Positions 18,701 through 59,200 of a stretch of DNA of 64,000 nt are shown here, piece by piece. The notes beneath the pieces are model-generated. The model was not told where the DNA came from and made no database searches. It saw nothing but the letters and a program-made list of their open reading frames with translations. The stretch's first letter is position 1. Every line of letters begins with the position of its first letter. Source of the stretch: Branchinecta lynchi (taxonomy: Eukaryota; Arthropoda; Branchiopoda; Anostraca; Branchinectidae); the NCBI GenBank assembly GCA_023053575.1, contig JAKZAP010000005.1, forward strand, positions 1,178,001 to 1,242,000, written 5' to 3'. Both the position numbers and the translations under genes were made by a program.

Positions 18701-21700
18701 ACGGCAACACCCGTTTCGTGTCGCTAGCTAATTTCTCCGAATAAATGGTAAAGGCGTGTGAAGAGTGTAAAGAAGCTGCAAAGCCCGTCACTGTTTACGA
18801 GTTTGATGACGACTACCGTAGCACTCATGCAGCAAAGTACCATGCAAAACAGTGCAGATTCCACCAGGAGTACTAAAGTCGGAAATAGAAATCTTCCAGG
18901 GAGTTTTAAAGCAGACTCAGACTAACAAACGAAACTTCGGACAGCTCTTCTCTATGGCCAAAGAGCACAAGCGTGCTCTTCCACTTGTTTACAGAGCTTT
19001 CGTTTTTGCAAAAACCGTACCCCTGACTTCAGCTGAAGGTGAGCCGACCTTCAGTAAGATAAAAATTGTAAAAAGCCGATTGAGGTCAACCATGGGCGAT
19101 GATAGACTTGACTCACTTATGCTCCTCTACATCGAAAAAGACATAGCTGCTGAGTTGGGGTCATCGGCACTTGTTGATGCGTGGAAAGTGAAGAAACAAA
19201 GGCGAAGAAACAAATGGAGTTAGATCAGCCAATCTTGTTTTGGAAACGAAAAGAGAAAACCTTGAGATTTGAAGAATTAGAAACACCGCTTCTTTAAATC
19301 GGATAAGTTTTATTTTCTTTATTTAGCTTATGTGTCCGCATTTGTCGGCACACTGGACGATTTTGTCGTCACAATTTTTTATATCCCCCCTCCAAACCTA
19401 AAACCCTAGCTTCGCCCCTGGTCACACCTAGTAATAACGTCGGTAATAAGGCCGTCTTACCGTCAAAATTGGGAAGAAAAGACGCTGAAAATGTAAGATT
19501 GTCGAGATGGAAAAATCCATCTCCGCCACTTTGAAACGTATCTTCGGTGCGTGTGGACCAATCACAGACCAGAGTCGCTGATTTTAGACAGTTTTGTTTA
19601 CGTTTGAGTGATGATGGTGGTAATATATCTTGAATTTCTTCGTTCCAGGTGTGACCAGGATGAAACGTAAGAGTGGGTAATAACCAAATTAACGAACCAA
19701 ATTACGTACAGATATGACTGAATGTGGCCCGGGCATTCGTGAGCTAGCAAGTTCCAAGTTTGCTTGTGTCGTCGAAGAAACGTCGACCGGGCAAGGATCG
19801 CCGGAGTTGTAAAAACACTAATTAAGCAAACGGTGAACTTCGACGGCGTTCGAAAACGAAATTGAGCAACCGGCTAACAAAACTTCGTTCAAAAACGCAA
19901 CTACTGCCGTCTGAAAATCCGAAAGGAGAGAGAGGGGGCATAGACAGTCCATATCGTGATCCAAGAAATATGCGGCTGTCATGGAAAAATACGCCAAAAA
20001 TTTCTTATTAACCCAAAATCGCAAAAAAACTCCAAAAAGGTTTGTCAAAAGAACCCGAGCAATTTTAAACCGCCAGCAAAAACAAATCCGCCAGTCTGTC
20101 GAAAAATCTGCCAGTTTTGCGTAAAATTGGCCAATATGGCAACGATGGGCATAGATAACCACTCGACGATTTTCCGCACTGTGTTTTTTTGCCGTAGACA
20201 ATCAGTCCAAAAACCCCCACTTCATCACTATGAAATTCCACACGGTGTGAACAAATGCGATTCCTGTCAACCTAGCAGACGCTCTACCTTTAATTATTGC
20301 AAATAAGTACGAGCTTGCTAACCACAAATTTATTTGTCTACCTTCTTCCGGGCACACTATCTAAATAGGAGCCCCTATTTATTCCTGATAGGACACTAGA
20401 AACTTTACTTTACAAATTTTTGGGTCGTTTCCGTCGGGCGAATGCTCAAAAGGCGACAATGTAAAAACTCGGGAGTGTCACATCCTCTTTCGGCAGTAGG
20501 CCTGAAAAGAAGACGAATGACGTCATTCGTCATCATGACGTCCAATTCTAGTTCTCGGATCTATACTGTGATGCTGCGGACACACGTCCGGGGTCGGGCG
20601 GTCGTGAACTACAGCTTCTGCTACGACTTTCCATCAGTTCCAGACTGAAAACTTGAGTGACTTGCTGATGAAAGTGCAGAACATCCGGCATGAATTGATG
20701 AAAAGACTGACGTGAACGTGTCAATGGATCTTGCTCCTAACAGCGTTTTCAATGTAGGGTCAGCATCAATACCCAAAAAAACAACTGCGTCACTCTCCCG
20801 AAAAAAATCTGATGAGTACAGCGGCGCATTCTCGGGGTTCAAAGTGAAGACATCTAAGGATCTTGGTAGATATGCAACCACCAGTGTTGACCTCGCAGCC
20901 GGGGAGACAATCGTCGTAGAAGAGCCTCACGCGTCTGTCCTGAATTTTGATAAATACGGAGGATACTGTCATCACTGCCACGAAAGGTAAACCAAATTAT
21001 GAAATATAACCGGAATGGGGTGTTTCTTCATAATCCGATTGAAGACCTAGAGCGTGTTCCACCCTACTTACCGTAGTTACTACGCATGACGTCACGATTC
21101 TGGCTTTTTGCCGTCAAGGCTGGAACGATTTTTCTATTTTCCAGCGGGATCTCACGCCAGGGGCGAATCCGACCAATCACGTTACAGAGATGCGTGGTTA
21201 CTACGCTTACTACGCTCCCGAGCATGGTAAGCAAATAGTAACTATTAGTTACTATTGCGACAAGGCTGGAACGGTCAGCGTAGTAACGTTTCTTGAGGAT
21301 GGAACGGAAATAGTAACTAATAGTAACTATTGTTAGAAGGGTGGAACACGCTCCTAGTAGAAGTGTTGGAATCTTCGTACTCAGACCGAAGACCTAGTAG
21401 AAGCTGGTGTATCAACGAATCACAGCAGTTAGGCGGACAGTACAAGAGACCTGCAGCCCTCATCTTGTTGGCTGCAGCCAACCTTACTGTTTCGCCTTGC
21501 CCATCTAAGCACAGACACCTCAAACCTAGAGGTGTCACGACTGGGGGGAGGGGAGGGGGGGCGCCCCCCCCCCTATGCCGTCGGTAAAAAAAAATACCGC
21601 GATTTTGTTAGCTCCGCGGTTTTTCGTCAAAACATTTGATTTTTGTTCATGAAAACAGTCGGTTTTTCTGAAAAATGGTCAATTTTTCGTCAAAATAGTT

Positions 21701-24700
21701 GTTTTTTCTGAAAATCAGTGGATTTTCTGGAAAATCAGTAGATTTTTTTTCAAAAATGTCATGTTTATTGTGAAAACAGTATTTTTTTCTGCAGAAAAAG
21801 TCGGTAAAAATTACCAGCCGGTCGGTAAATGCCTCGTCCCCCCCCCCAAACATTTTGGCTAGTAACACCTCTGCTCAAACCGCAGAAAAGGGCCGCGTAA
21901 TTTTGACGCGATAGTATTCTATCCTGCACCTTACTACAGCCGGGCAGCTTAATAAGATTACTCACGCCAAACTTCCTTTCCTCCCAAACCAGAATAATGA
22001 GAAACAACTGGTTTGAACTGCCTGCCTCCGCAAGCGCGCTTGATAGTATTCTATCCTGCACCTTACCACTGCTGGGCAGCTTAATAAGATAGGGTTTGTG
22101 AACTAACCCTCCCGAATCAAACTCGGCTAACTCAAACATCCAAAACCATTCACCGTACCCTGTTTTATAATACCTCTACCCCCTCATGACCCATCCTTAT
22201 CATACGCCCATACACAACAAACTTCCTTTCCTCCCAAACCAGAATAATGAGAAACAATTTGTTTGAACTACCTGCCTCCGCAAGCGCGCAGGGTAGAACT
22301 GGCGTTATCTTGTTGGCCGTACGGATCGAGACTGAAAAACTGCCATGGGATCCGGAAAATGTATTGGCCTGAAGTGGTACCTTATTTCCCCGTCAGCGAC
22401 CTGACAATGTTCGGGGAACTAGAATGCTCGGTATCCATTTATAGCAGTTGACGCCATCTTGGACGCCATAGACAGATTTTCGCTACTACGGAATTGTCAC
22501 TAGTCTTCAGTATTTGTGGTGTGTGTAACAAGCGGCGCCAGGTATGGGGGGACGGGGGTGGGGGGGGGGACGCCCCCTAATGCTGTCTATTGCTGAGTCG
22601 GCGCGACGCGCCACGATTTCTCGGAAAACGGTCGATTTTTTTCTTGGAAACAGTCGATTTTAGTCGATTTGTATTGAAAATCAGTCCCTTTTTCGTCAAA
22701 ACAGTCATTTTTGTCTTAAAGTTCAATGAGCACATCGAACTACCCCAATCCCACTCTGTAACAGCCTAGGAACAATGCTTACCCCCTAGATCAGCAGTTT
22801 TTTCAACAGTTTCCTCTCTGTGATATTTCAAAGCGTAATTTTGTGGGCCAGTACATGCTCAGTTTACAATCTTGAACAATGATAAAAGTGATGTTTCTTA
22901 TAATACTTATTAGATCTTTATTTTATGCATAAATCAGCTTGTATAATTCAGATTTGAATAGGATATTTGTTTTTGAATGATTTTTGTAGCTATGTTATTT
23001 TTTATAAGCTTATTGCATATTTTGGCACATTTTATAAAGCAAGCTAATCAAGCTTCACAACACTATTCCACAAAGAAAAACTTTTAATAGGTACTTTAAG
23101 CCATGGAACTTCTGATGAAACACTAGAACAATCAGGTAAACTGCATCTGCGGCTTGACTTTGGTGACATTTCAAATATATCCTTTTCTATCAAGCATTGC
23201 TGGGAGTTTTTGAATTTCCTGCCACGATATCCCAGCTCCTAAGATTTGGATCGCCGAAATGCCAGAGAGATAAAGACAAGGGATAACAAGAAAACGGCCG
23301 ATTTTCGTAGCGCCTTCTAAAGGAAGTCGGAAATGTTTATTTGTTAAGCATTTAATACAAAGTAAATCATTAGAAGTGTCCATTGTGCTTTAAAAACAGT
23401 TGTTTTTCTGCAAAAATAGTCGTCAAAATGACCAGCCTGTCCGTAAATACCTTGCCCCCCCTACCCCCCAAACATTTTGGCTAGTAACGCCTCTGTGCGT
23501 AGCTACGACGGCTGAACTAGTTACAAATTTTTTTCCAGGCTGATCGCAGTCTTTTCCTGTCCATGGTGCCGCGGTATGGGATTCTGCAGCGAACAGTGCC
23601 GCCAAGCCGCCGTTTTGTCTTATCACGTCTACGAGTGCCATTTGACTGACCTAATTTACGCGAGTGGCATGAGCCACCTATCGGCGCTAGCCCTCCGCGT
23701 GGTGAGCCAGAAGGACCTTGAATATTTCAAAACTTTTGCCGAAAATGAAGAAAAGCTAGATGGCTCCGTCCGTTCTTACGCGAGCATACGGAACCTTGTA
23801 GGACACGAGGAGTTGAGGGACGGCAAGGACATGTTCATGAGAACAATGATGGCGGTTTTCCAACTGAGACTACTGAAATTCTCGGGATATTTCAGAGTCA
23901 AGCAAGATGCTCCAGCGGAATATCCAGAGGAAATTGCAGGTAGATTTTTAACAATTCTACCGCGATCGTCATCGATACCTTTTTAGATAGAAACAATCTT
24001 ATATTCAAACGGGGATGCTGGTAAGTGACGTGAGAAATAAAGATGTACCCGGGTAGCTAGGTAACGAAGCTACAAAATGCTCGTCAGGTGCTCTTTCTGC
24101 AGATTTATTTGTATCCTCCGTTTCTGATTGTGCAACAACGTTCCATTAGAGTACTGATGAAATTGGAGAAAATACTCCGGGAAAGCCTAAGCTACGTCAT
24201 CACCATAACTTGTGTCTTGGTTCTCTTTGTCTTCTGGGATTTTTGGACCCAACTAATAAACTTGATCAGCCTCTGCTGACCTTGGTTTGGTCTGACTTTT
24301 AGTCCTATTTTATTTCGTTACTGACCTGAACAACGGTGTACTTTCATTTTAGGCGTTCCAGATCTCGGCGAAGATGAACTGCTAATTGGCACGGTGCTGC
24401 TACGCAACCTCCACGTTTTGCAGTTCAATGCACACGAAGTCTGTGACCTAGCAGTGGTGGATGGGCAAGGGTTAATAAAAGCGAAGTCTCAAAGTGTTGG
24501 TCTGGCTGTCTATCAAACTGCTTCACTCTTCAATCACTCATGCTACCCAAATGTTGCACGGTAACTAGTTCCTCTAATGCCTTGTACAGATAGGGTTGCG
24601 TGCTTGTAGACAGGAATTCCTGCCGGACTTTCGGCACCATTCATCGATTCCATGTGAAGAAGTTTAGGTTGATATTCCTTCAGCCCAAGATGACTGCGGA

Positions 24701-27700
24701 GATTCGACGGTGCAAAACGGATTTCATTTCCCAGCTTGAGCGGCTTGAGCCTGAAGATGACCCTTGCCAAGAAGGGCCGAAATATAACTCTAGTAGCTGA
24801 CTTATCCGTTTTTGCACCGTCAAATATGAAGTTTAGATTTCTACAACTTGACGATGAAAGGGCCGAAAGTCCGGCCAGGACATCTTGATCGCGTGTTCGC
24901 ACTGTGGAGCAAGCGAGCTCTCGCTTAACTTTTTGAATCCTACAAGAAACTAACTCACCAGAGGGATATCTTCGTCTGTCCGATTTGGTTGCTTGGAAAG
25001 ACCCGGGTAGCGCCTGTCACAGTGGAAGCTGCTGGGCATTAGGAAGTTTAGAAGGAGATGGTTTAAGTAGCGTTTACACTGACGAGAAATCCCGTCTAGT
25101 AGAAAGGAATTCCGGTCGACTCGAAAGGATTCCGTTCGTGAAGACGACTAGAAAAAAAGTCTACCGGGACGAGAATCCAAAGGAATTCCGGTCTGCTTGA
25201 AATGAATTTCGTCGGTGGCGCTGATAAAAAGACTAAATAAAAGTCTAGCTAGCTTTTGAGAGCAGCAGTCATCAGTACTGATTTCATAAATGCTCTCAAA
25301 CAAATTTTGTATTGGCTAGTGAATTTATTTTTTCAGATTTTCTGGTTTGAAGAATTTATTTTTTTCCCTCTTGCGTGTAAACATAATATTGTCACCAAGA
25401 TCGGATTCTGTTCAAGTTTTCTTGTCCTTGTTAACGCTGTATTAGATGGCCTAACAGCAACAGGCGGCCACTCAAAGGCTCAACTCGAAAGTCTTTTAGA
25501 GAAATACAGTTAACGCTCGAGGCTGCAAAGCTGCTGCGGCTTTCCAGCCGAGCTTTTACCGCCATGAATATGGGCTTCTCGTGGCATCTGTCGGATTTAC
25601 AATGAGACTGTGATATGTAGCGGGCCCGGACTTTGTTATGCGATTCATCAAAGAAAACACGCTTGTTAATGATACCAAGAATAAATAAGGGATTATTTAT
25701 TTATTCTTGATTTATTTATTCTTGTTTATTTCTTATTTATTATTTTTTTATTTATTCTTGTTTGTTTTACTTCTTATTTATTTATTCCCTTATTTATTCT
25801 TGATGATACGGCGATTTGCGGGGAAGAAAATGAGAACAAAGCATTAGTTGATGGTTGCAACAATAGAAACAGGACATGCAGGTTAGCCTCGATCTAGTCC
25901 CTTATATAGTTTAACCAAAAAAGGGCTGGGACAGGACAATCTAGTTACCAATTACTTTTTCAGTTAAATTGGCTTGAAGACCCGCTGAAAATGCATTACT
26001 TCGTTGTTCCGCTATTCACGAATAATCGATTTTATAGTGAAATTTCCGTGGGAATTGTGGTACCTCTATGCGCTTTTATTTTTGTTGTATGCCTTACGAG
26101 AAAGATTTGTGCAATATAAACCAATCTCACCACTGCCCACTGAAAAGCCACGTTTGTGTTGAGATTAAAATTTCACGCCTCATAATATAACTTACGCTGT
26201 GGGGGCGGCCACAGATATTCTGAATGTCATAAGAGCAGATAGTGGAAAATTAAAAAATCCCTTTGCAGAATCCAAATAATTCAGTGTATTCAATTAAATG
26301 ACAAAACAATAAGATGGCTTTTCAGTTGAACTTTAAGCAAAGCTTGCGATTTTGAGTTTATAAAGAAGGGGAGAGAAGCGTGACGGAAACGCTAATTTCT
26401 ATAAGGGTACATCTTTCAGATATTTCATTGGAACCAAGCTTGTCATTCGTACAACACGTCAAGTTCCTTCCGGTGCAACCCTTTATGACAATTACGGACC
26501 CCTTTTTACCCAGAAGAACTTGGTGCAAAGGAAGAAGCTCACACAGGGAAGATATTGGTTCGACTGCTCTTGCGAAGCCTGTACTCAAGACTGGCCGGTC
26601 CTAAGCAAGATGAATATTGACGAAAACCAACGATTCAGGTAGTAAAGCTAGGTAACCTACTATACTCTTGATGACTATGAGCGTGTTCCACCCTACTTAC
26701 AGTAGTTACTACGCACGACGTCACGAATTCTTGCTTTTTGCCGTCAAGGCTGGAACGATTTTTCTATTTTCTAGCAGGATCTCACGCCAGGGATGAATCC
26801 GACCAATCACGTTACAGAGATGCGTAGTTATTACGCTTACTACGCTCCCGAGCATGGTAAGCAAATAGTAACTATTAGTTACTATTGCGACAAGGTTGGA
26901 ACGGTCAGCGTAGTAACGTTTCTTGAGGATGGAACGGAAATAGTAACTAATAGTAACTATTGTTAGAAGGGTGGAACACGCTCTATCTCTCCTTGCTGAT
27001 GCAAAATCTCCGGCCTCTCTCCGGGTACCTAGTGGAAGAGAGGCAGAAGTGATGTCACAGCTGCTCTCGAAGAACGCCGTGATAGTTTGACACAGGATTT
27101 GAGTCGTTGAGTTTGAGTCGTTATGAAGACGCTTACTCCTTCTTCCTGAGGATCACTGGCGTATTTTGGACTTCCAGATGGAGTATTCATTTTACTTCAA
27201 AGTAGCCGCCCATCGTTTTCGGAGACTGACGCAGTCACGCACACGTACGGTAGAGGTATGCTTATGTGAAGGTTTGTTGACATTGGATTTTGCCATTTTC
27301 ATGCACTTGCTGTGTCTAAAGCTAACTAGACTGTAAAACGAAATCGTGCAGTATTTGCTACTGGGATTAATCTTGTCTCCACTGAGATCTCTAATTCGTA
27401 TAGAATAGCAAATACCGCAGTTAACTTAAATGCTTACTCGGAGAAACTTTTGTCAGTGTACCCGTAGCCAAAGTAGGTAGTTAAGGGTATCTGAAAACCC
27501 CTGAATAGGTACTTTGGATCTTCATTCTACCTTTTAGCCAAAAACTGCACTGTTCACATTAAAGTAACTGTTCACATAAAAATAAGTCTACTGTATATTA
27601 ACCCCTGTTACAGACGGAAACGAAAATTCGCAGCCAAGTCTTGTCTGAACATCCGTACGGCTTGGTACTAGGAACTTCACTTAGAAGCCATAACCCATCG

Positions 27701-30859: not shown

Positions 30860-31160
30860 TTTTGCCCACTCTCACAATGCCCACGCTCAGAATGCCCACG
30901 ATTAAAATGCCCACGGTTCAAATGCCCACGATTAAAATGCCCACGACTCGAAATGCCCACGACTGAAAATGCCCACGACCACGAAATGCCGGCGGCCTAA
31001 ATTGCCGACAGTTGAAAGTGGTCACAGGGGAGGCTAATGTCGTATCGGAGGCCAAAATTATCCTGGGACAGCGAATTTTCTCGCTGTGGGCATTTTGAGC
31101 CGTGGGCACTTTGAGTTGTTGGCATTTTGAGTCGTGGGCATTATGATCGTGGGCGTTTTT
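30860..31160. repeat. Inverted AATGCCCACG minisatellite
   Basis: The left half (30880-30980) repeats AATGCCCACG about every 17 bp; the right half (31083-31160) repeats the complement CGTGGGCATT. The two halves could pair into a long hairpin. It lies between the convergent 3' ends of SMYD4 and FTCD. Confidence 0.75.
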
Positions 31161-31199
31161 AGTGTTAGCCCTTGAATGAGCCCTCGAGCTCGACCCCAT

Positions 31200-41200: not shown

Positions 41201-44200
41201 ACAGTAAGAACTTCAAGTCACCAGTCTGGAACTCGAAGGGCGTGCACATGAATACATCTGGACTGAGAAAGCGTCTGCATGAATACATTTCAAGAGAAGA
41301 ACAAGAAGAAGAATACAGGATCCCAAAAAGGCATGCTTTTCCCATTTAGCATTTGCTATCCAGAATGTTACTGTGAATACACTGTAAAAAAATAATCTTG
41401 CAGTATTTGCTACTGGGATTAATCTTGTCTCTAAAAAGATTATCTTATCTCTAATTCGTCTTCCTCCTTGGACGCGCAATACCTACATGACCAATAAATA
41501 CGGTCTCGTTGACCCGATTCGAAAGCTCGATGAGCTATGTCAACGAGTAAAATGCAGTAAGAGCGGCCATGAGTGGGAAGGGGTTGTTTTTTGACATTTT
41601 GTGAATTATAAGTGTGATTTTTCCCTCTGTGATTTGCTTTTTGTTTTTCTTTGATGTGTGATCTTTTTTTCAGTGTTTTTTCTACTTTCTTTCTTTTTTC
41701 TACTCCATCATTTTCTCTTTCCTGTACGATGGGTGAAAAATAAACATTACATTACATTAAATTAATCTTTTCTCAGTAGAGATAAGATTAATCCCAGTAG
41801 CAAATCCTGCAGTTAACTTTAATCCTTACTCGGCGGAACTATTTACCGTGTATACTCCAGTTTTGCTTGAAATAATCAAGCCGTGTCTGAGTTTTCCGTC
41901 ACGCGAACGATCTAGAACCCTCTCGAAACTGTTTTTAAACCCATCTCTCCAGCTCACTGTTATGAAGAGAAATGCAGACCTAGATACGATTTTTGAATGG
42001 AACTAGTGGAGGAAGAGTTTGGACGGAGGCACAAACCAAAAGCACTAGAAAACCTATTCGAAAATCTTCTGTTGTCCTCGTGAGCGTGTTCCATCCTACT
42101 TACTGTAGTTACTACGCATGACGTCACAAATTCTGGCTTTTTGCCGTCAAGGCTGGAACGATTTTTCTATTTTCTAGCAGGATCTCACGCCAGGGGCGAA
42201 TCCGACCAATCACGTTACAGAGATGCGTAGTTACTACGTTTACTACGCTCCCGAGCATGGTAAGCAAATAGTAACTATTAGTTACTATTCCGACAAGGTT
42301 GGAACGGTCAGCGTAGTAACTTTTCGTGAGGATGGAACGGAAATAGTAACTAATAGTTACTATTTATGGAAGGGTGGAACACGCTCCGTGTGACTAATTT
42401 TTCTTTGTCAACTCCACGTCTTTATGGGCGAAAATAAGTAATGATAACCATGTATCCCCCAAGAACGGATAAAAATGACTGAAGTGTACCGAGTATTACT
42501 TCGGCCTTTTTACACAACGAAATCCTGGTCAACCTAAAGGAGATATCAGACTTACCGGGGGTCAAACTTGCTGATAGACGACAGTCCCATCTTGTGGATT
42601 ACTAGCTTGAGCTTCTGGTCTTCCTCGAGTATCATCAGTCCCTCTTGCTTTATGTAGAAGTCGGCTGCTTCCAGTAGTGCTTTCAAGGGTACTAACCCGA
42701 CAATTTCGGAGCCACCTACGCCAACCTGGATTTCTCTTGCATCTTTGCAAACCTATCAGTTCAAAAGACTGTGTTTATTCTTGATCTGCAAAATATCTGC
42801 AGATATTTGATAATTTGATATCTGCAGACAGTGTTGCCAGATCGTGATCCAAAAAATACGCCGCTGTCTTTGAAAATACGCAAAAAACACAGAAATTTCT
42901 GTTTAACCCAGAATTGCAAGAAATCTCTAGAACACTTACAAGGATTGTCAATAGAACCCAAATAATTTTAATACGCCAGGAAAAAGAAAAAACCACCAGT
43001 CGGTCGTAAAATCCGCCAGTTGACGTAAAATCCGCAAATTTGGCAATACTGTCTGCATTAAATGCTCAGGTGTGATATCTAAGGCCGAGCTTGTAGCGGG
43101 GGAAAATCTTTCTGCGTGTCTTACAGGTTAAATTCATGAGGAAGCTGGATTCATGACCGGAAGGAGGATAAAACAAAAATGAATTAGGTCTGTAATCGAA
43201 TTAGTCAAAACATTGGGAGGTCACCCATGTCTCCAAGACAAAACTGATCGGCCTAATAAACGAAGAATCTAAATTAAATCCGATGGTGTAGGCAAGGGCG
43301 TCACGACTAGTTGTGACGGTTGTCGGCCAGTGGTCGGTAAAAAATAGCCGAGCGCCACGATTTTTTTCTTGGAAACAGTCGATTTTTTTTTTTTTTTTTA
43401 ACATTCAGTTTCTCGTAAAAATAGTCGAATTTTTTATTAAATAGTAGTTTTTCTGAAAATCAGCCGATTTTTCGTCCACACGGTCGTTTTTCTCAGTAAT
43501 AGCCGTTTTGTATCTGCTAAAACAGTCGGTAAAAACAACCAGCCAGTCGGTAAATATCTCCCTCCTCCCAAACATTCTGGCTAGTAACGTCTCTGGGTGT
43601 GGGGATGATGATATACAGGGTTCATCAGCCAAGCGGAGAGGAGGATTTTATGGACGAGAGGAGACAGGGTTTTCACCTCTTCATACGCGACGTGTAGTGG
43701 AGTGACATCCATATCTGTCAAATTGAGGGACACTTGCGCCATGTTTTGCTCCTCAAGCCACCAGCCAATTCCTTGCACAGATTGTAGCCTTCCTTTTTCT
43801 TCTGGTCCCCGTCCCTGCTCCCGCAGGTTGAGAGCTATCCTAGAAGGCAAACCAATGTTAGAACCATACCAGGTCGAAAACTACTGCACTAGTGCAGAAT
43901 ACTGCACAAGGAATCAAGCGAAAGAAAGGGAGGCAGGCCCCTATTTACATATATTTCCCTTTTTGGTGAACTACACATTTCGGTTCATATGTTTTCGTGC
44001 TAAGTAATGTCCACTTTGGGCTTTTGAAGTGCAAATAGATAATTACATGTGTAAACCAAGTATGAGAAGGGAAAAATCATAAGCCTCGGGAATATTCCGT
44101 TTAGTGTAAGCTACTGAAATCCTACGGAGAGCTAAAATAGCCAGGCATTCACTCAGCTATTAAAGGACCTCTCGCACTATTTACTCTTCAACTTACAGTT

Positions 44201-47200
44201 TCTTAAAATATTTGAATACTTTAAAACTAGGCTGTGGTTTCAACAAATAACCCATGGTTTTGGCTGTTTTAAGCCTTTTCGGAGACCCGTTGACTTATAG
44301 GGAAACAATTTACATAACCAGTTTTTCGGATGGAAAAACTTCTCGCAGACAACCGTCGACAGCGTGATACACATCGAATGTAGCACAACACGGCAAGTGA
44401 GAAAATCAGCGTGGTCTTGTTAGACGGGTTAGAATGTACCGTGGGAAATTGGGTTCTCCGGGTTTACAAATATATGGAGTGATATGGAAGTAGGTTGCGT
44501 TAGTATTATAGGTAAGACAGGTCCTTTAAAACATAAATGACGTGAACAGCGTTCCCCATTTACTTTTTTCAGGCCCTTAGTACCCCCGCTTTCACAAGAT
44601 AGGAGCGCTTCCTTCCGAGTTTTGCGATGAGTAGTAATTTACATTCGAAACAAGTCGTCATCAACCGCGAAAACAGGCTTCGGATATTATGACGTCACAC
44701 TATGACCTCACCCTTCTACAAATAGTAACTGCTTACCGCTCTCGGGAGCGTAGTAAGCGTCGTAACTACGGATCTCTGTAACGGGATTGGTCGGATTCGC
44801 CCGTGGCATGATATTCTGCTGGAAAATAGAAAAATCGTTCCAGCCTTTACGGCAAAAAGCCAGTATTCGTGACGTCATGCATTGTAACTACGGTAAGTAG
44901 GATGGAACACGCTCAATATGTCTGGTTTGCTTATGAATGATCATGCTTGATCGGCTAGCGTCGAAAGCCACGCCCTAATTTATTGCAGCCTGCCGAGCAC
45001 CACCTAAGTGTTGACTGCTGAAAATTAAAAGGCGCAAATCATTGCAAATATTTGGATTCAGGCGGGATTGAAAAGCCTTGGAAATTTAAACAAGAATTAT
45101 TTGTTGTGCCCTTTGTGCTTTAGGCTACTAGCTAAACTATTTTTTTTACGAAGAGTTTTTCGTAAACCACATTGGCCTCACATTGGAGTGACGCTAATAC
45201 CGAGCGATAACAGTCATAATTGTTATTCGCAGGTATTGGTGAGTGGCTCGCTGTTTTTATTAGGTTTTGAATTCTTCCAATTTTGGTTATAATTTTCGGT
45301 TTTTTGTTGGTTTTCCGCTTTGTTCTGGTTTTCTTGGTTGTTAATATTCATCCTTGTTTTGGCATTTTTCCTCCAAATTTTCTGACTGCGCTGAAGAAGG
45401 GAGGCGGTTGTGCTACGGAAATGTTTGCCTTTTATTTCAAGACATTCGTTGGCCTTTACAAACCCCCATTCTCCTTGGTTTCTTCGTTGATTTTTTTTTA
45501 CTTTTTTTACATTTGAACACAGGAAAGCAAGCACACAAAAAGCTCTTTGCAAACCGCCTTCCCCTAAACCCTAATAACCACTATTTTATTTTGGGCCGAT
45601 CTGTTCTCATCCAGAAATAAGGAGTTATTTTTATGTCCCATAAAACAGAAGCGTCATGCACTTTTGTCTGAGAGGAAAAAAGATTTTTGGATGCGCCGGA
45701 AACTGCGTCTTTGATGCCTCGTCAGATGTCCTGAACGACAAAAGGATACATAGGGCTACTATGACAAAGCAAAGAGACGATAGAAGTTTGTATGGTCCAT
45801 TAATGACTAATTGAATAAGACGACGGTGAATCCGTAATGTTCTACGTTAAGTGGAGCTAAGTCATGGTCATATGTTTATTACGCTCGTGTCCATGTACAC
45901 CTTATGTAAGCCTTTTTGTCAATAGAACCCGCACAATTTAAATACGCCAGCAAAAAAAATCCGTCGTAAAATACGCCAATATGGCAACAGTGCTGACCAT
46001 AATGAGCAGGGGCGTCACAACTAGGTAGTAGGGGGGGGGGGGAGATGGGGCCCGAAGCGGCGAAGCTTTGACTTTTTTTCGTAAAAAAAAGTCGATCATT
46101 TTCTTGGAAACAGTCCCTTTTTTTTAAATCAGCGGGTTTCTCGTAAAAATGGTCGATTTTTTCTTAAAATAGTAGTTTTTCTTAAAACCAGCCAATTTGT
46201 TGTCAACACAGTCGTCTTTTCTCATTAATAGTCGTTTTATCTGCAAAAACAGTCGGTAAAAATGGGATCGGCTAAAACCAGGAAGGGAAGGGAACGCGAG
46301 AAAAGCAGGAAGGCATACTAAAACCAGGAAGGGCATACTAAAAAGAGGAAGGCTGTCGCCAGAATTCGCCGCACCGTTCCCTTCCTCTGTTTAGTACTAT
46401 TTGAGGGGTCAGCAACTACTTTCAAGGTAGTAAAAAGAGGAAGGAAATGGTGGACTTGAAATATCTTAGTTGCCGACACCTCGCTGGACTCGGAGGTTTG
46501 AATCGCCTACCGTCAGAACGACAAATGAAAAGGTGAATTACAATTTTATAGTTCCTGACCCCTCACTGAAGTTAATGCCTACCCATGTTAGGATACTAAA
46601 ACGAGGAAGGGATGGTGAACTTCGAATTTGAGAAGTTGCCGACCCCTCAAATAGTACTAAAGAGAGGAAGGGAACGGTGCGGCGAATTCTGGCGACAGCC
46701 TTCCTCTGTTTAGTATGCCCTTCCTGGTTTTACTATGCCTTCCTGCTTTCTCGCGCTCCCTTCCCTTCCAGGTTTTAGTTGATCCCAGTAAAAATGACCA
46801 GCAAGTCGGTAAATACCTTGCCCCCCCAAAAAAAACAAATATTTTGGCTAGTAACACCTCTGCTAGTGATCACTGAAATTTACTTACTTGTGTGCTTGTT
46901 CTTTCGTTCCAAGGATGTTCACATTGTACGCAATTAAAAACTTTCGGACTCCAGTCGCTGTGCAACCCCATTGAGGAACAAACTTGGCAGGTCCGAAGTC
47001 CGGTTCCCACTCCTCTTTTTTCAGCTAAAAAAGAAGCGTAAAAGGTGGAAACTTAGGTCGAAGGTTACTAGATGCTTGAATGCAATTTGGTAGGCTTCTT
47101 GGTCCCACGATTACAAATGACCGAGGCGTCCAAGATGAGAAAGCATGAAATAGCAAGTGTTACAGAAATTAGTTAATGAAAGAAAAAAGGATTTATGACG

Positions 47201-53200: not shown

Positions 53201-56200
53201 GATAAGAACTAATAAGCTTGATATAAAACATGTCTCCGAACCACATGCGGCATTGGCTGGGGTAGCTGGAGGAGGGTGGGAGGGAAGGACCTTAAACTTT
53301 GTGATACGGTCAAAAAACAAACGAATGGGCTGACTGGGATGCAAGTTGGACAGTACCGAGTTTATGCTGCCTAGTTTGTCATATGGCGTCCGGACCGGAT
53401 CCGGCAACGGTAGAGGAGGAGGTCAGGCGGAAACCAGAAATGTGCAGAAATGTTCCAATTCGAGTCAAGCTTGACGGACGAGAAGAGAAAATGTCAGTGA
53501 TGCGAAGTTTATGTGTCCTAGTCGTGTCCTAGTCCTTGGATAATCTGTAAATGTGGCTGAACCAGATTTGGCCTTGGCACGGAAGTTTGAGGGCGAGGCG
53601 TACCGACAATAGTAATCTAACTAGGAATCTAACAGTTCTAGGAATCTAACTAGTATGGCGAAACACTGCAATAGATTATCCGAGGCAATGAAATGCTCAG
53701 GCTCGCGTAAAATGAGATACGTTATTTTCTAATCCTAGGGGGTGTTGAAGGGGGGATTTCGTGACATTCTCGTCTACTTTCTTGTACCACCTACTCGTAA
53801 CAAGTGCCATATGAGCTCGTAGCTCTTGTTTTGAAAATCAGTTGCCTTTTTTTCAAAACTGTCTTTTTTTTTTAAACAGTGTTTTTTTCTTGAAAACAGT
53901 CGTTTTTTCTGCAAAAACAGTCGGTTACAGCCAGTTGGTAAATGCCCCCCCCCCCCCCCCCCCCCAACATTTTGGCTAGTAACACCTCTGTGGCTCTGTT
54001 CATGGTGACCTCAAGAGTGTGGATTTGTATGCAGCAAAAGCAGAAGATTAGACTGTTACTTGTCATTTTCAGCCGCAAGATACAAAGGTTGGCCAACTTC
54101 GGCCTATCTGTCAGTTGAGTTGTTCCTCTAATCACTGGTAGCCTAGGTATTTTACCAATGACACCTTTAAGCTGGGACCCATTTCATTCATCCATCTTGA
54201 ACCATACGTTTAATTTGTCAATATCATCAGCATCATCATTTTCAAACTGTCGTTATGATCGCACGCACCATCCGAACCGAGAGCACAACCGCATTCCTTT
54301 TTCAAAACAAAATTTCGCAGAAGGACAGGGATGTAATCGATAGGTTAGTTTTGTGAACTTGTGTTAAAGAGATGTTCCACCAGATTAGAAGAACAAAGTA
54401 TCGAGACTCGAGAGCAACTTTTGGCAATTGTAACCAAAACTTTGGATTGGGCCAGAATTGGATGAAAGAAACGAACGGACATGCCGGTTATTCTCAACAC
54501 GGAATTTCTGAAGGCACTGTCTAGGGAACCGGGAGTCGTACTTTATTTCCTACGGGCTACGGAACCGGTAGTTCTCACGGAAACCAAACCATATGAGCTG
54601 CGATTCCGGGATCTGACGTCATTAACTAACGGAAACTTGTATGTGCTGGCTCCCGTTCCGGTAGTAATTGGAAATAGCTCACGGAAACTTCATCGCACCA
54701 GCTTCTCGTCCGGTGGCCTCACAGAATTGTGTACTCAGAAGCTAGGGAGCCGGTAGTTGATACCGGAAACTGTATAATTGGAGCTTCTGTTCCGGTAGTG
54801 TCTACGTGGAATATAAAACTCACGGAATAGTTTGGATGAGAGCTAGGATGCCGGGATTTTCACGGACTTAGAGAAAATAAAATGGGAAAAAATTCACTAC
54901 CGGAACCCATATATTGAGAGCTAAGGTACCGGTAGAAACTACTATTTGCTTGAAAATGACCAGCTCACGGACACAGATGGCTATGGGCTAGGGTTCCGGT
55001 AGTGATGAAAAAAAAAAATTGAACTCACGTACCCATGTCAGTGCAGACTAGGAAACCGGAAGCAAATATTTTTAACTAACGGAACCCAACTTCTGCTGGC
55101 TGGGGTTCCGGTAGGGCAAAAAAGAAATAAGATGTATAACTGGATTCAGTGAGCTGTACTGGACTCAAAGTCCATATTGACACCCGTCCATGGGTTTTTA
55201 ATTTTATTTTTTGGCACTACCGGAACCGCAGCTCGCAAGAGCTGGGTTCCGTGAGTAAAAAATATTCACTTCCGGTTTCCTAGTCTACACTGACATGGGT
55301 CCGTGAGTCCTATTTTTTTTAATTTTCGTCACTACCGGAGCCCATAGTCACCTGTGTCCGTGAGCTGGTCATTTTCAAGCAAATAGTAGTTGCTACCGGT
55401 ACCTTAGCTCTCAATATATGGGTTCCGGTAGTGAATTTTGTCCAATGTTGTTTTCTCTAAGTCCGTGAAAATCCCCGTAACCTAGCTCTCATCCAAACTA
55501 TTCCGTGAGTTTTATATTCCACGTAGACACTACCGGAACAGAAGCTCCAATTATACAGTTTCCGGTATCAACTACCGGCTCCCTAGCTTCTGGGTACACA
55601 ATTCCGTGAGGCTACCGGACGAGAAGCTGGTGCGATGAAGTTTCCGTGAGCTATTTCCAATTACTACCGGAACGGGAGCCAGCACGTACAAGTTTCCGTT
55701 AGTTAATGACGTCAGATCCCGGAATCGCAGCTCATATGGAGCGTGTTCCACCCTTGTAACAATAGTTACTATTAGTTACTATTTCCGTTCCATCCTCACG
55801 AAAAGTTACTACGCTGACCGTTCCACCTTGTCGGAATAGTAACTAATAGTTACTATTTGCTTACCATGCTCGGGAGCGTGGTAAGCGTAGTAACTACGCA
55901 TCTCTGGAACGTGATTGGTCGGATTCGCCCCTGGCGTGAGATCCTGCTGGAAAATAGTAAAATCGTTCCAGCCTTGTCGGCAAAAAGCCAGAATTCGTGA
56001 CGTCATGCGTAGTAACTACGGTAAGTAGGATGGAACACGCTCATGGTTTGGTTTCCGTGAGAACTACCGGTTCCGTAGCCCGTAGGACATAAAGAGCGTG
56101 TTCCATCCTACTTACCGTAGTTACTACGCATGACGTCACGAATTCTGGCTTTTTGCCGTCAAGGCTGGAACGATTTTTCTATTTTCCAGCAGGATCTCAC

Positions 56201-59200
56201 GCCAGGGGTGAATCCGACCAATCACGTTCCAGAGATGCGTAGTTACTACGCTTACCACGCTCCCGAGCATGGTAAGCAAATAGTAACTATTAGTTACTAT
56301 TCCGACAAGGTTGGAACGGTCAGCGTAGTAACTTTTCGTGAGGATGGAACGGAAATAGTAACTAATAGTAACTATTGTTACAAGGGTGGAACACGCTCAA
56401 AGTACGACTCCCGGTTCCCTAGACAGTGCCATTTCTGAAAGATGCTCTCCCCGATTTGTCGGCATCATCAGCGATGGATAAATTTGAAACTTGAGAAACC
56501 AGTCTGACTGACTGAGTCCAGAGTCTGAGCTAATTTAATTGTTTGCCATGGTGTAACAGGCGGAGGGGAACTCATCATTTGACACTGATAGCCAAAGCAT
56601 TTGATACGGCATGGCCAAACTGTGTGAGGTCCTTCAAGGCTTGATTGCAATAGGCAATCTCAGTCTTAATCTTATCACCCCAAAAATGGGATAACTGAAC
56701 AAATTTGAAAAAAAAAATGGTTGTCCTGACAAACGGTGTTGGCATAAAGTAGAAATCTGCATCAGGTCTATATAGGGGAGAGGGGGTCAGGTTTGTTATG
56801 TTTTTGCTTTTTTACATACCAAGGTTTCGTTTTAGGTTCTGTTGATTCCATTTTTGCTGACTGTCTCAAATCATGTCTTGGATCTTGTTGTTACTTTGTA
56901 GAAATTTGCTCCCTTCAACATTTTCTTTGCAAATTCAGTTTTCCTATTAGCTACTTTGGTCAGGACCTGCCCCCATTGCTGGAGCAGCTCCGGCCATCAC
57001 TTTTTTTTTTAACCCGGAAACAGGGAAAGAAGTTGTGTACACATTTTTCGTATGCTTTTGTTACCTCAGTTCAGCTTCGTTAGTTTGCTTCCGTTTCAAA
57101 ATCTGGACAAGTATACCATCACATTGTCAACATTGGTTATTATCATTGGGATATGCTGTCACCACCTGGTCACCACTGCCACCGCTGCATCAGAATATGA
57201 CTTGCTTTCTTTCATAATGGGTCGTAAAGACTTTCTAAACCTTTTTGCTGACTTTTTTCCTTCCCTGGTCTAATTTTTGTATCTTTCATTATTTTCTCTT
57301 TGTTCCTTTCATATTCTCTTTCTTTGCTGTTCAAACTTTTGTCCGGACCTGCTCCTGTTGCTGTTTTCACAGAGATAAATTTGTAACTTCAAACTGCTGT
57401 ATCATTTATGGAAATTCGTTTTCGACATGGTAGATCCAATCTTAAACTGCCTAAGTAAAATTCATTGACATTTAAGTGGGTTTGGAACTACCAACACGAG
57501 GTGCCAACTCCATGACGTAGAACCTGCTTTCGTGCCAAAAAAGTGCCAAAAACATTGGTTTGGCTGCGGAAATTTTGACTGAAGAAGCGCATAAGTGCAA
57601 CGTCCCTGAAAAACATTTTCGCATAATTTAAATTTCTATAGCGAGGCTTGCAGAGCCGATGTCCGGACCTCTATGACGGACCTGAACCCCTTGCTCCCCT
57701 ATTTGAGCAGTTACTTAAATGTGAACAGTGCAGTTTTGGGCTAAATGATAGAATAAAGATACTTATACAGATGTTTTCAGAGGCCCTTAATTTCCTACTT
57801 CGGGCAACTGGTAGTTAACTTTAGTCACAGCAAGTGCACGAAAATGGCAAAGTCTCAAATAAGCATACCTCTACTGTACCAATAGGCTACTGACTGAAGT
57901 GACAAAGTGCATTGTATTTATGGACAAGTGGCATTGAGCAGTCACACCAGCAAACCCAGATTTGTCAGAGCAGGTCACAAGTTCCCTGATGGCAATAGGT
58001 TGTGGTCAGGGGCATCACGACTGAGGGGGGGACCCTCCCCCCCCAGTGCTGTCGGCCAGTCGGTAAAAAATAACCGAGTCGGCGCGAAGCGCCGCGATTT
58101 TTCGACAAAACAGTTGATTTTTATCATGAAAACAGTCGTTTTTTCTGAAAATTGGTCGATTTTTTGTCCAAATAGTGGGTTTTTCTGAAAATCAGTTGAT
58201 TTTTCTGAAAATCAGTGGATTTTTCTGAAAATCCACAATGCAGTCGATTTTTTTCAAAAATGTCATTTTTTTTGTTGAAAACAGTCGTTTTTCTGCAGAA
58301 AAAGTCCGGAAAATTACCAGCCAGTGGGTAAATGCCTCGTCCCCACAAAAAAACAAACATTTTGGCTAGTAACTCCTCTGGTTGTGATAATCCCATCTCG
58401 TCAAGCAGCTGTCTAAAGAAAAATGGACGAAAAGGTGAGTTACTTCTTTTCATAGGCTATCAAATATTTGTCTTTGATTCCTCTTTAGGACATTGACTTC
58501 ACATTAACTAATCTAGGACACACTTGGCTAGTTTTCACTATGGTTGTAGCACAATGCTGACACATATGCAGTGACAAAGTGAGCCGTCTGAGTCCTGGAC
58601 CTAGTCTGGACAGCAGCGCTGTTAAAGTGTTGCAGACTATTGGTGTGTTCTAGCCTTCTACTGGGAGTAAATGAGAATGGCAGTCAGTTTGATCAGGCGC
58701 GAAGCACCACAGTTTTTTCCTAAACATCTGATTTTTTCTCAAAAACTTTCAATTTATCTTAAAAACAGTCAATTTATCTTAAAAACAGTTGTTTTTTTCT
58801 GAAAAACAGTCAGTAAAAATGACAAGCCAGTTGGTAAATACCTTGGCCCCCAAAAACATTTTGGGTAAAACACCTATTTCTGCTAGTTGTATTCATCCAG
58901 TTGAGTTGAATATGGTATTCTTCTAATTCCTCTGTTAAAAGTGCTCAGTCAAGCATATAAACCTTACAGCTTTCTGCCTTTATCTCTTTTATGGTATTTG
59001 TTTGTCACAACATTCTTCACTTACCATCCAGATTTAAACTGTTGGAATGGAATGGCTTAGCAACAGTTTTAATACTTAATGGAGTGCCCATTTACGAGCA
59101 GCCCTCTATTGCAGCAGCACTAACTTATTTTCAGTTTTCACCATGTTTTGCGGTTTTCATTACTCACAAACCATAACAGGTATCAAGTTGAAACTTGGTT

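What the first reader, a model, noticed from the sequence alone, without database searches (positions are those of the whole stretch)
54504..56439. Foldback element with 9-bp target duplication and arms made of serial hairpins
An exact ATTTCTGAA duplication flanks a 1.9-kb palindrome beginning GGCACTGTCTAGGGAACC. Each arm is itself a chain of 60-70 bp units alternating TCACGGAA and TTCCGGTAG, so single strands could fold at two scales. The near-identity of the arms implies recent insertion or ongoing arm conversion. A 9-bp TSD is known for Mutator-like and FB elements; I do not recognise this family.
Basis: partly seen in the sequence, partly recalled or inferred. Interest (0 to 1): 0.75.

Follow-up and report, generated by a model that had tools for sequence, protein, structure and literature searches.

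The report
Foldback transposon with repeated 39-bp sites
This looks like a small, non-coding jumping gene in an animal gene's intron whose two long mirror-image arms are built from ten similar 39-base units that may be docking sites for the enzyme that moves it; the kind is known, and I could not tie this one to a described family.

Summary
An exact 9-bp duplication (ATTTCTGAA) flanks a 1,918-bp palindrome (54513-56430). Two MITEs (304 and 305 bp), each with its own 3-bp duplication, are nested in the right arm only; without them the element is 1,303 bp. It lies in intron 1 of an FTCD gene. No transposase was found in the 20 reading frames tested. The "serial hairpins" are better described as ten units of exactly 39 bp per arm: CTMACGGAA, a variable middle with GCT at one place in 9 of 10, TTCCGGTAG. 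Half-sites start 28 bp apart, linkers are 1-39 bp, units are on average 58% alike. The halves are not kept complementary: no covariation above shuffles, one pair failing in 8 of 10 units. The tip itself matches the right half-site. This fits arrays of transposase-binding sites, as shown for Galileo, better than selected hairpins. Arm divergence rises from 1.7% near the tips to 12.5% near the centre, so the arms were probably equalised from the ends, and not across the MITE sites since the MITEs arrived. Most likely: a non-autonomous Mutator-type foldback element. The superfamily is unproven (Merlin remains open), because the genome-wide search did not complete in 19 of 19 tries.

The parts
54504..54512 (.). 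left target-site duplication ATTTCTGAA
   Evidence: exact 9-bp match to 56431-56439
54513..56430 (.). whole foldback element, 1,918 bp as it stands, 1,303 bp without the nested MITEs and one copy of each of their 3-bp duplications
54513..55123 (+). left arm
   Evidence: pairs with the right arm; inverted repeats I1, I3, I5 and I9; alignment
54513..54535 (+). left tip; 54519-54535 is a single right-type half-site
   Evidence: PWM score 17.1, above all 124,132 positions outside the element (best 12.3); tip not used to build the PWM
54555..54571 (+). subterminal single right-type half-site
   Evidence: PWM score 23.5, not used to build the PWM
54574..54612 (+). unit 1 of the left arm (39 bp)
54626..54664 (+). 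unit 2
54678..54716 (+). unit 3
54718..54756 (+). unit 4
54760..54798 (+). unit 5
54819..54857 (+). unit 6
54897..54935 (+). unit 7
54964..55002 (+). unit 8
55024..55062 (+). unit 9
55076..55114 (+). unit 10
55124..55207 (.). centre (loop), not paired between the arms
   Evidence: 84 nt between the arms of I3
55208..56430 (-). right arm, mirror set of units: eight intact at 39 bp (starts 55217, 55269, 55393, 55471, 55530, 55572, 55612, 55664), one shortened by 6 bp (55332-55364), one cut by MITE 1 (from 55716)
   Evidence: PWM scan; arm alignment
55739..56042 (-). nested MITE 1, 304 bp, TIR GAGCGTGTTCCA, TSD ATG
56094..56398 (+). nested MITE 2, 305 bp, same family, TSD AAA; differs from MITE 1 at 4 of 305 aligned columns
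56431..56439 (.). right target-site duplication ATTTCTGAA

Best explanation
This is a non-autonomous foldback-type DNA transposon, most likely of the Mutator (MULE/Phantom) superfamily, inserted in intron 1 of an animal FTCD gene. Shown: discrete tips, an exact 9-bp TSD, mirrored arms of about 600 bp, and ten 39-bp bipartite units per arm plus single half-sites at the tip and just inside it. Inferred: a transposase made elsewhere binds the half-sites, probably as a dimer that spans the 28-bp distance between them. The many copies raise its specificity and bring the two ends together, and the end is cut next to the tip half-site. The long hairpin is a by-product of having the same array at both ends, and it may let one arm repair the other. 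Arm homogenisation probably started at the ends during past moves, which would explain the rise of divergence towards the centre. Two MITEs with 3-bp duplications, hence of another superfamily, jumped in later.
For: 9-bp TSD and exact 32-bp outermost inverted repeat. Fixed 28-bp spacing with free linkers. Positions 2, 5, 8, 25, 26 and 33-36 invariant in 10 of 10 units, while positions 12, 14, 16-18 and 21 carry 0.1 bits or less. The halves are not co-varying pairs. The tip and subterminal half-sites score above each of the 124,132 positions outside the element. Arm-to-arm mismatches fall on conserved unit positions in 4 of 18 cases, 7.8 expected, P = 0.049. Literature: the Galileo THAP domain binds several repeats in foldback-like TIRs (PMC3688188, abstract and section 2.6). 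Muta1, an active MULE called a type 2 foldback element, has 8- or 9-bp TSDs and nine 12-bp subterminal repeats (PMC5225508, passages). Tm1 has mostly 9-bp TSDs, repeated composite TIRs and a Phantom-type transposase (PMC3169594, passages). Tetris is a foldback element with 8-10 bp TSDs (PMC4079207, passages).
Against: No transposase and no second copy were seen, because 19 of 19 genome searches did not complete, so the superfamily rests on TSD length and architecture of one copy. Three of the ten units fold as hairpins well beyond shuffles, and pairing within units exceeds all six slid registers, so some pairing role is not excluded. The avoidance of conserved positions by mismatches is only borderline, and the conserved set was defined on the left arm. 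The rise of divergence is weaker if only the outer 476 bp are taken (15 mismatches, P = 0.02) or if clustered differences are merged (19 events, P = 0.005). The repeats of Muta1 (12 bp) and Tm1 (13-15 bp) are much shorter than 39 bp. No binding was measured, and helical phasing of the units was not tested.
Confidence: 0.6

Rival explanations
1. Same architecture and mechanism, but the mobilising transposase is of the Merlin superfamily (IS1016-like), whose elements end in 5'-GG and make 8- or 9-bp duplications.
For: The element starts GG and has a 9-bp TSD; Merlin is described with terminal 5'-GG-3', TIRs of 24-462 bp, 8- or 9-bp TSDs, and some families with internal tandem repeats (PMC8101967, abstract and passages).
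Against: The 12 of 23 passages shown mention no foldback-type Merlin with arms of about 600 bp, whereas most foldback elements are said to seem to belong to Mutator, with exceptions (PMC4079207 passage).
Confidence: 0.17
2. The units are selected as hairpins: single strands fold at two scales, and folding (cruciform, ssDNA intermediate, or a hairpin RNA made from the intron) is what the arms are for.
For: Halves are partly complementary (68.2% of cells pair, against 17.5-49% when slid by 1-3 columns); units 5, 7 and 10 fold with z of -2.9, -3.5 and -4.3; the whole element is a palindrome inside an intron, so it is probably transcribed (transcription not tested).
Against: Pairing is no better than with shuffled partners (68.2% versus 66.5%, 137 of 500 shuffles as high) and pair 4/36 is unpaired in 8 of 10 units; mean z is only -1.2; the tip holds one half-site with no partner.
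Confidence: 0.12
3. A foldback derivative of the P superfamily (Galileo-like) or of another cut-and-paste group.
For: Galileo has a 1.2-kb repeated TIR with several transposase-binding sites (PMC3688188), and foldback form is said to arise independently in different groups (PMC3169594 passage; PMC4079207 passage).
Against: Galileo duplications are 7 bp and P/hAT ones 8 bp (recalled, not from a call); here it is 9.
Confidence: 0.08
4. Not a transposon: an inverted duplication or an assembly or sequencing artefact.
For: Foldback artefacts in long reads are known (PMC12870357, title and abstract start in the listing, not read).
Against: Arms differ at 35 positions plus indels, only one arm carries the MITEs, each MITE has its own TSD, and the whole has an exact 9-bp TSD.
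Confidence: 0.02

Closest known systems
Muta1 and related MULEs of Aedes aegypti (Muta1 is called a type 2 foldback element), PMC5225508, passages read
   Same: 8-9 bp TSD; long TIR with a distinct tip followed by an array of subterminal repeats with short linkers; many non-autonomous derivatives
   Different: 12-bp repeats, nine copies, 145-bp TIR; here 39-bp bipartite units, ten per arm, arms of about 600 bp, linkers of 1-39 bp, tip itself a half-site. No transposase known here
Tm1 of root-knot nematodes (Mutator/Foldback, Phantom-type transposase), PMC3169594, passages read
   Same: 8-10 bp TSD, mostly 9, in 45 of 53 complete copies; composite TIRs of repeated motifs; non-coding forms; the two TIRs 93% identical on average
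   Different: 13-15 bp tandem motif and asymmetric terminal motifs CGGTTAA/CCTACCC, which are not the tip found here
Galileo (P superfamily, foldback-like), PMC3688188, abstract and section 2.6 read
   Same: Long internally repeated TIRs in which several transposase-binding sites were shown
   Different: Different superfamily; four long direct repeats, with the site found in the first two; TSD 7 bp (recalled)
Tetris (Drosophila virilis), PMC4079207, passages read
   Same: Non-autonomous foldback element, 8-10 bp TSD, repeats in TIRs, no transposase found
   Different: TIR-220 repeats that became satellite DNA; no bipartite 39-bp units described in the passages read
Merlin superfamily, PMC8101967, passages read
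   Same: 5'-GG tip and 8-9 bp TSD
   Different: TIRs of 24-462 bp in that account; foldback form not mentioned in the passages read

Membership tests
Foldback-type DNA transposon (structural class) | long inverted repeats that fill most of the element | tested here: met
   arms about 600 bp each of 1,303 bp
Foldback-type DNA transposon (structural class) | arms made of repeated subunits | tested here: met
   ten 39-bp units per arm; in the right arm eight intact, one shortened, one interrupted
Foldback-type DNA transposon (structural class) | target-site duplication of constant length across copies | tested here: inconclusive
   exact 9-bp TSD for this copy; other copies not seen
Mutator/MULE superfamily | 8-10 bp TSD | tested here: met
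   9 bp, one copy; range from PMC5225508 passage
Mutator/MULE superfamily | long TIRs (over 100 bp) | tested here: met
   criterion
Mutator/MULE superfamily | MULE-type DDE transposase in an autonomous relative with the same tips | not tested
   The genome search unanswered in 19 of 19 tries; 20 reading frames of the window, of 174 listed at 75 aa or more, scanned against Pfam gave no MULE domain
Merlin superfamily | 5'-GG tip and 8-9 bp TSD | tested here: met
   GGCACTG tip, 9-bp TSD; criterion
Merlin superfamily | IS1595-type DDE transposase in an autonomous relative | not tested
   The genome search unanswered; none in the 20 frames scanned
Galileo / P superfamily | 7-8 bp TSD (recalled) | tested here: not met
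   9 bp, one copy

The most novel reading that the evidence does not exclude
The arms are a row of composite sites at which a transposase dimer grips two different half-sites exactly 28 bp apart, and the cut end is itself the outer half of such a site. Transposition would then begin from a transposase array that covers the whole arm, and each move would repair one arm from the other starting at the tip, leaving the measured tip-to-centre gradient of divergence. That would be a foldback design in which arm length, site number and arm equalisation are one mechanism.
Probability: 0.25. Interest if true: 0.55.

Novelty: new member of a known kind. Interest (0 to 1): 0.36.

Why it matters
Why foldback elements keep long mirrored arms is not settled. 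Here the arm splits cleanly into fixed, conserved letters and free filler, with the same half-site at the tip. That makes a sharp prediction (a protein footprint on 39-bp units, not a hairpin), which can be tested with one binding assay and a family alignment. The gradient of arm divergence gives a second test, of how the arms stay alike. As a transposon it is otherwise ordinary.

Tried and rejected
Genome-wide search for the 18-bp tip: asked 19 times, with pauses; did not complete. So no copy number, no family TSD table, no autonomous partner.

Plasmid records and viral contigs (exact tip only): no match; both tools warn that records near the window's genome may be left out. Rfam: no match in the window at gathering scores. 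Pfam on 20 of the 174 reading frames of 75 aa or more: parts of a MYND-finger gene (below the cut-off), FTCD and a hAT remnant, no MULE. A short text pattern meant for MULE transposases gave no hit in six frames of the window, which is weak evidence.

Hairpin reading of the units: tested by covariation and folding and judged weaker than a binding-site reading. Artefact reading: rejected on arm differences, nested MITEs and TSDs. A search of the window for other large inverted repeats listed five rows: a pair of MITE copies, three overlapping rows of one repeat near 30.9-31.2 kb that I did not examine, and one unrelated element (see Noticed in passing). In that call my filter dropped the foldback element itself, whose match is self-symmetric.

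Paper searches on foldback elements, FB-NOF, Phantom, binding sites, 39-bp units and arm conversion: no title or abstract start shown points to this element. For most papers only that was seen, and several of the lists were cut. Five terms on arm conversion and rearrangement were not found in one further Galileo paper (PMC3573991). I do not claim that the family is absent from the literature or from Repbase, which I could not search.

Full report
What is there. The window is animal-type DNA with split genes: it holds exons of an FTCD gene on the minus strand (Pfam FTCD_N and FTCD_C; first exon near 62.2 kb and the next near 49.2 kb by recalled motifs) and exons of a MYND-finger gene (zf-MYND, E = 0.00086, below the curated cut-off). 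The species is unknown to me. The finding lies between those two FTCD exons, that is in intron 1 by this reading. An exact 9-bp duplication, ATTTCTGAA, flanks positions 54513-56430, whose two ends are the same sequence in inverted orientation. The tip has no other match in the window at up to three mismatches.

Nested elements. Two copies of one MITE (TIR GAGCGTGTTCCA) sit in the right arm, in opposite orientation, with 3-bp duplications ATG and AAA. Three further full copies in the window have 3-bp duplications CTA, TAT and CGT, and there is one partial copy. The two nested copies differ from each other at 4 of 305 aligned columns, and from the three other full copies at 12 to 17, so they are sister copies. 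Because they lie in one arm only, no arm-to-arm copying has passed over their sites since.

Arms. With the MITEs left out, the element is 1,303 bp and aligns with its own reverse complement from end to end at 91% (1,197 of 1,321 columns). The outer 620 bp of the arms differ at 35 positions, with 12 gap columns. The differences are not evenly spread: 5 of 300 (1.7%), 10 of 176 (5.7%), then 16 of 128 (12.5%) from the tip inward, the last 4 differences (beyond position 604) left out. One of 100,000 random placements was as skewed; with neighbouring differences merged to 19 events P is 0.005; for the outer 476 bp alone, 15 differences, P is 0.02. Post-insertion mutation alone should be even. I read this as past equalisation of the arms from the ends, with stronger constraint near the tips as an alternative. 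The divergence of the outer arms (1.7%) and of the two MITEs (1.3%) are alike, but the numbers are small.

Units. Each arm holds ten units of, in origin, exactly 39 bp. In the left arm their consensus is CTCACGGAAAC, then a middle with GCT at positions 24-26 in 9 of 10, then a right half ending TTCCGGTAG. Nine positions are invariant in 10 of 10 units and others are random; pairwise identity is 58% on average (38-74%), so the copies are old and mainly the half-sites have been kept. Linkers between units vary from 1 to 39 bp. In the right arm a scan finds eight intact mirror units; by the arm alignment one more is shortened by 6 bp and one is cut by MITE 1.

Hairpins or binding sites. The two halves of a unit resemble inverted copies of each other but are not equal: left halves usually read CTCACGG or CTAACGG, right halves CTACCGG on the other strand. 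Against 500 shuffles, pairing within units is ordinary (68.2% versus 66.5%; 137 shuffles as high), covariation is ordinary, and pair 4/36 fails in 8 of 10 units. On the other side, the pairing exceeds all six slid registers (17.5-49%), as it also would for two similar inverted binding sites, and three units fold strongly. A profile of the right half, built from the ten left-arm units only, finds the tip itself (17.1) and a subterminal site (23.5). The best score outside the element among 124,132 positions is 12.3, and the 22 best hits all lie in the element: the ten training sites, the tip and subterminal sites, and ten right-arm mirrors. Arm differences inside units touch conserved positions in 4 of 18 cases, 7.8 expected, P = 0.049. 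Together this favours a protein that reads the half-sites at a fixed distance, most simply the transposase.

What it works like and what it is. In print, foldback-like TIRs with repeated binding sites are shown for Galileo (PMC3688188: abstract and section 2.6 read). MULEs with subterminal repeat arrays and 8-9 bp duplications are described around Muta1 (PMC5225508: passages), and Tm1 joins foldback-like TIRs, mostly 9-bp duplications and a Phantom-type transposase (PMC3169594: passages). Tetris is a non-autonomous foldback element placed in Mutator on its TSD length and on earlier suggestions about foldback elements (PMC4079207: passages). The present element works like these. Its membership in Mutator is likely but untested at the decisive point, the transposase. 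Merlin also fits the GG tip and the 9-bp duplication (PMC8101967: passages).

Limits. The genome search was unanswered in 19 of 19 tries, so everything rests on one copy. The unit profile and the conserved positions were defined on the left arm of this copy. No binding, transposition or expression was measured.

Noticed in passing
window 46263-46787: A second, unrelated palindromic element of 525 bp: arms of 158 bp at 94% identity, internal repeats around CTAAAAC-AGGAAGGG, tips TGGGATC/GATCCCA with a 7-bp duplication GTAAAAA (or 9-bp GTAAAAATG if the ends are taken as asymmetric).
   Followed up: partly
window 21050-21353, 26679-26983, 42082-42386, 44718-44914, 55739-56042, 56094-56398: A MITE family of about 305 bp with TIR GAGCGTGTTCCA; all five full copies in the window have 3-bp duplications without a shared sequence (CTA, TAT, CGT, ATG, AAA); the copy at 44718 is partial.
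   Followed up: partly
window 55739-56398: The two MITEs in the foldback arm are sister copies 51 bp apart in opposite orientation, 1.3% apart while the three other full copies differ from them by about 4-6%: a local hop or conversion between them.
   Followed up: partly
window 18822-19220 (+): Remnant of a hAT transposase, dimerisation region, at the Pfam cut-off (21.4 bits).
   Followed up: no
window 53826-53994 and similar stretches at 21703, 23390, 35092, 43487, 58200, 58733: A dispersed repeat, 70-78% alike between this copy and those six, lies about 500 bp left of the foldback element; shorter hits were also listed.
   Followed up: no
window 30868-31165: Overlapping short inverted matches of 71-80 bp (80-83%), not examined.
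   Followed up: no
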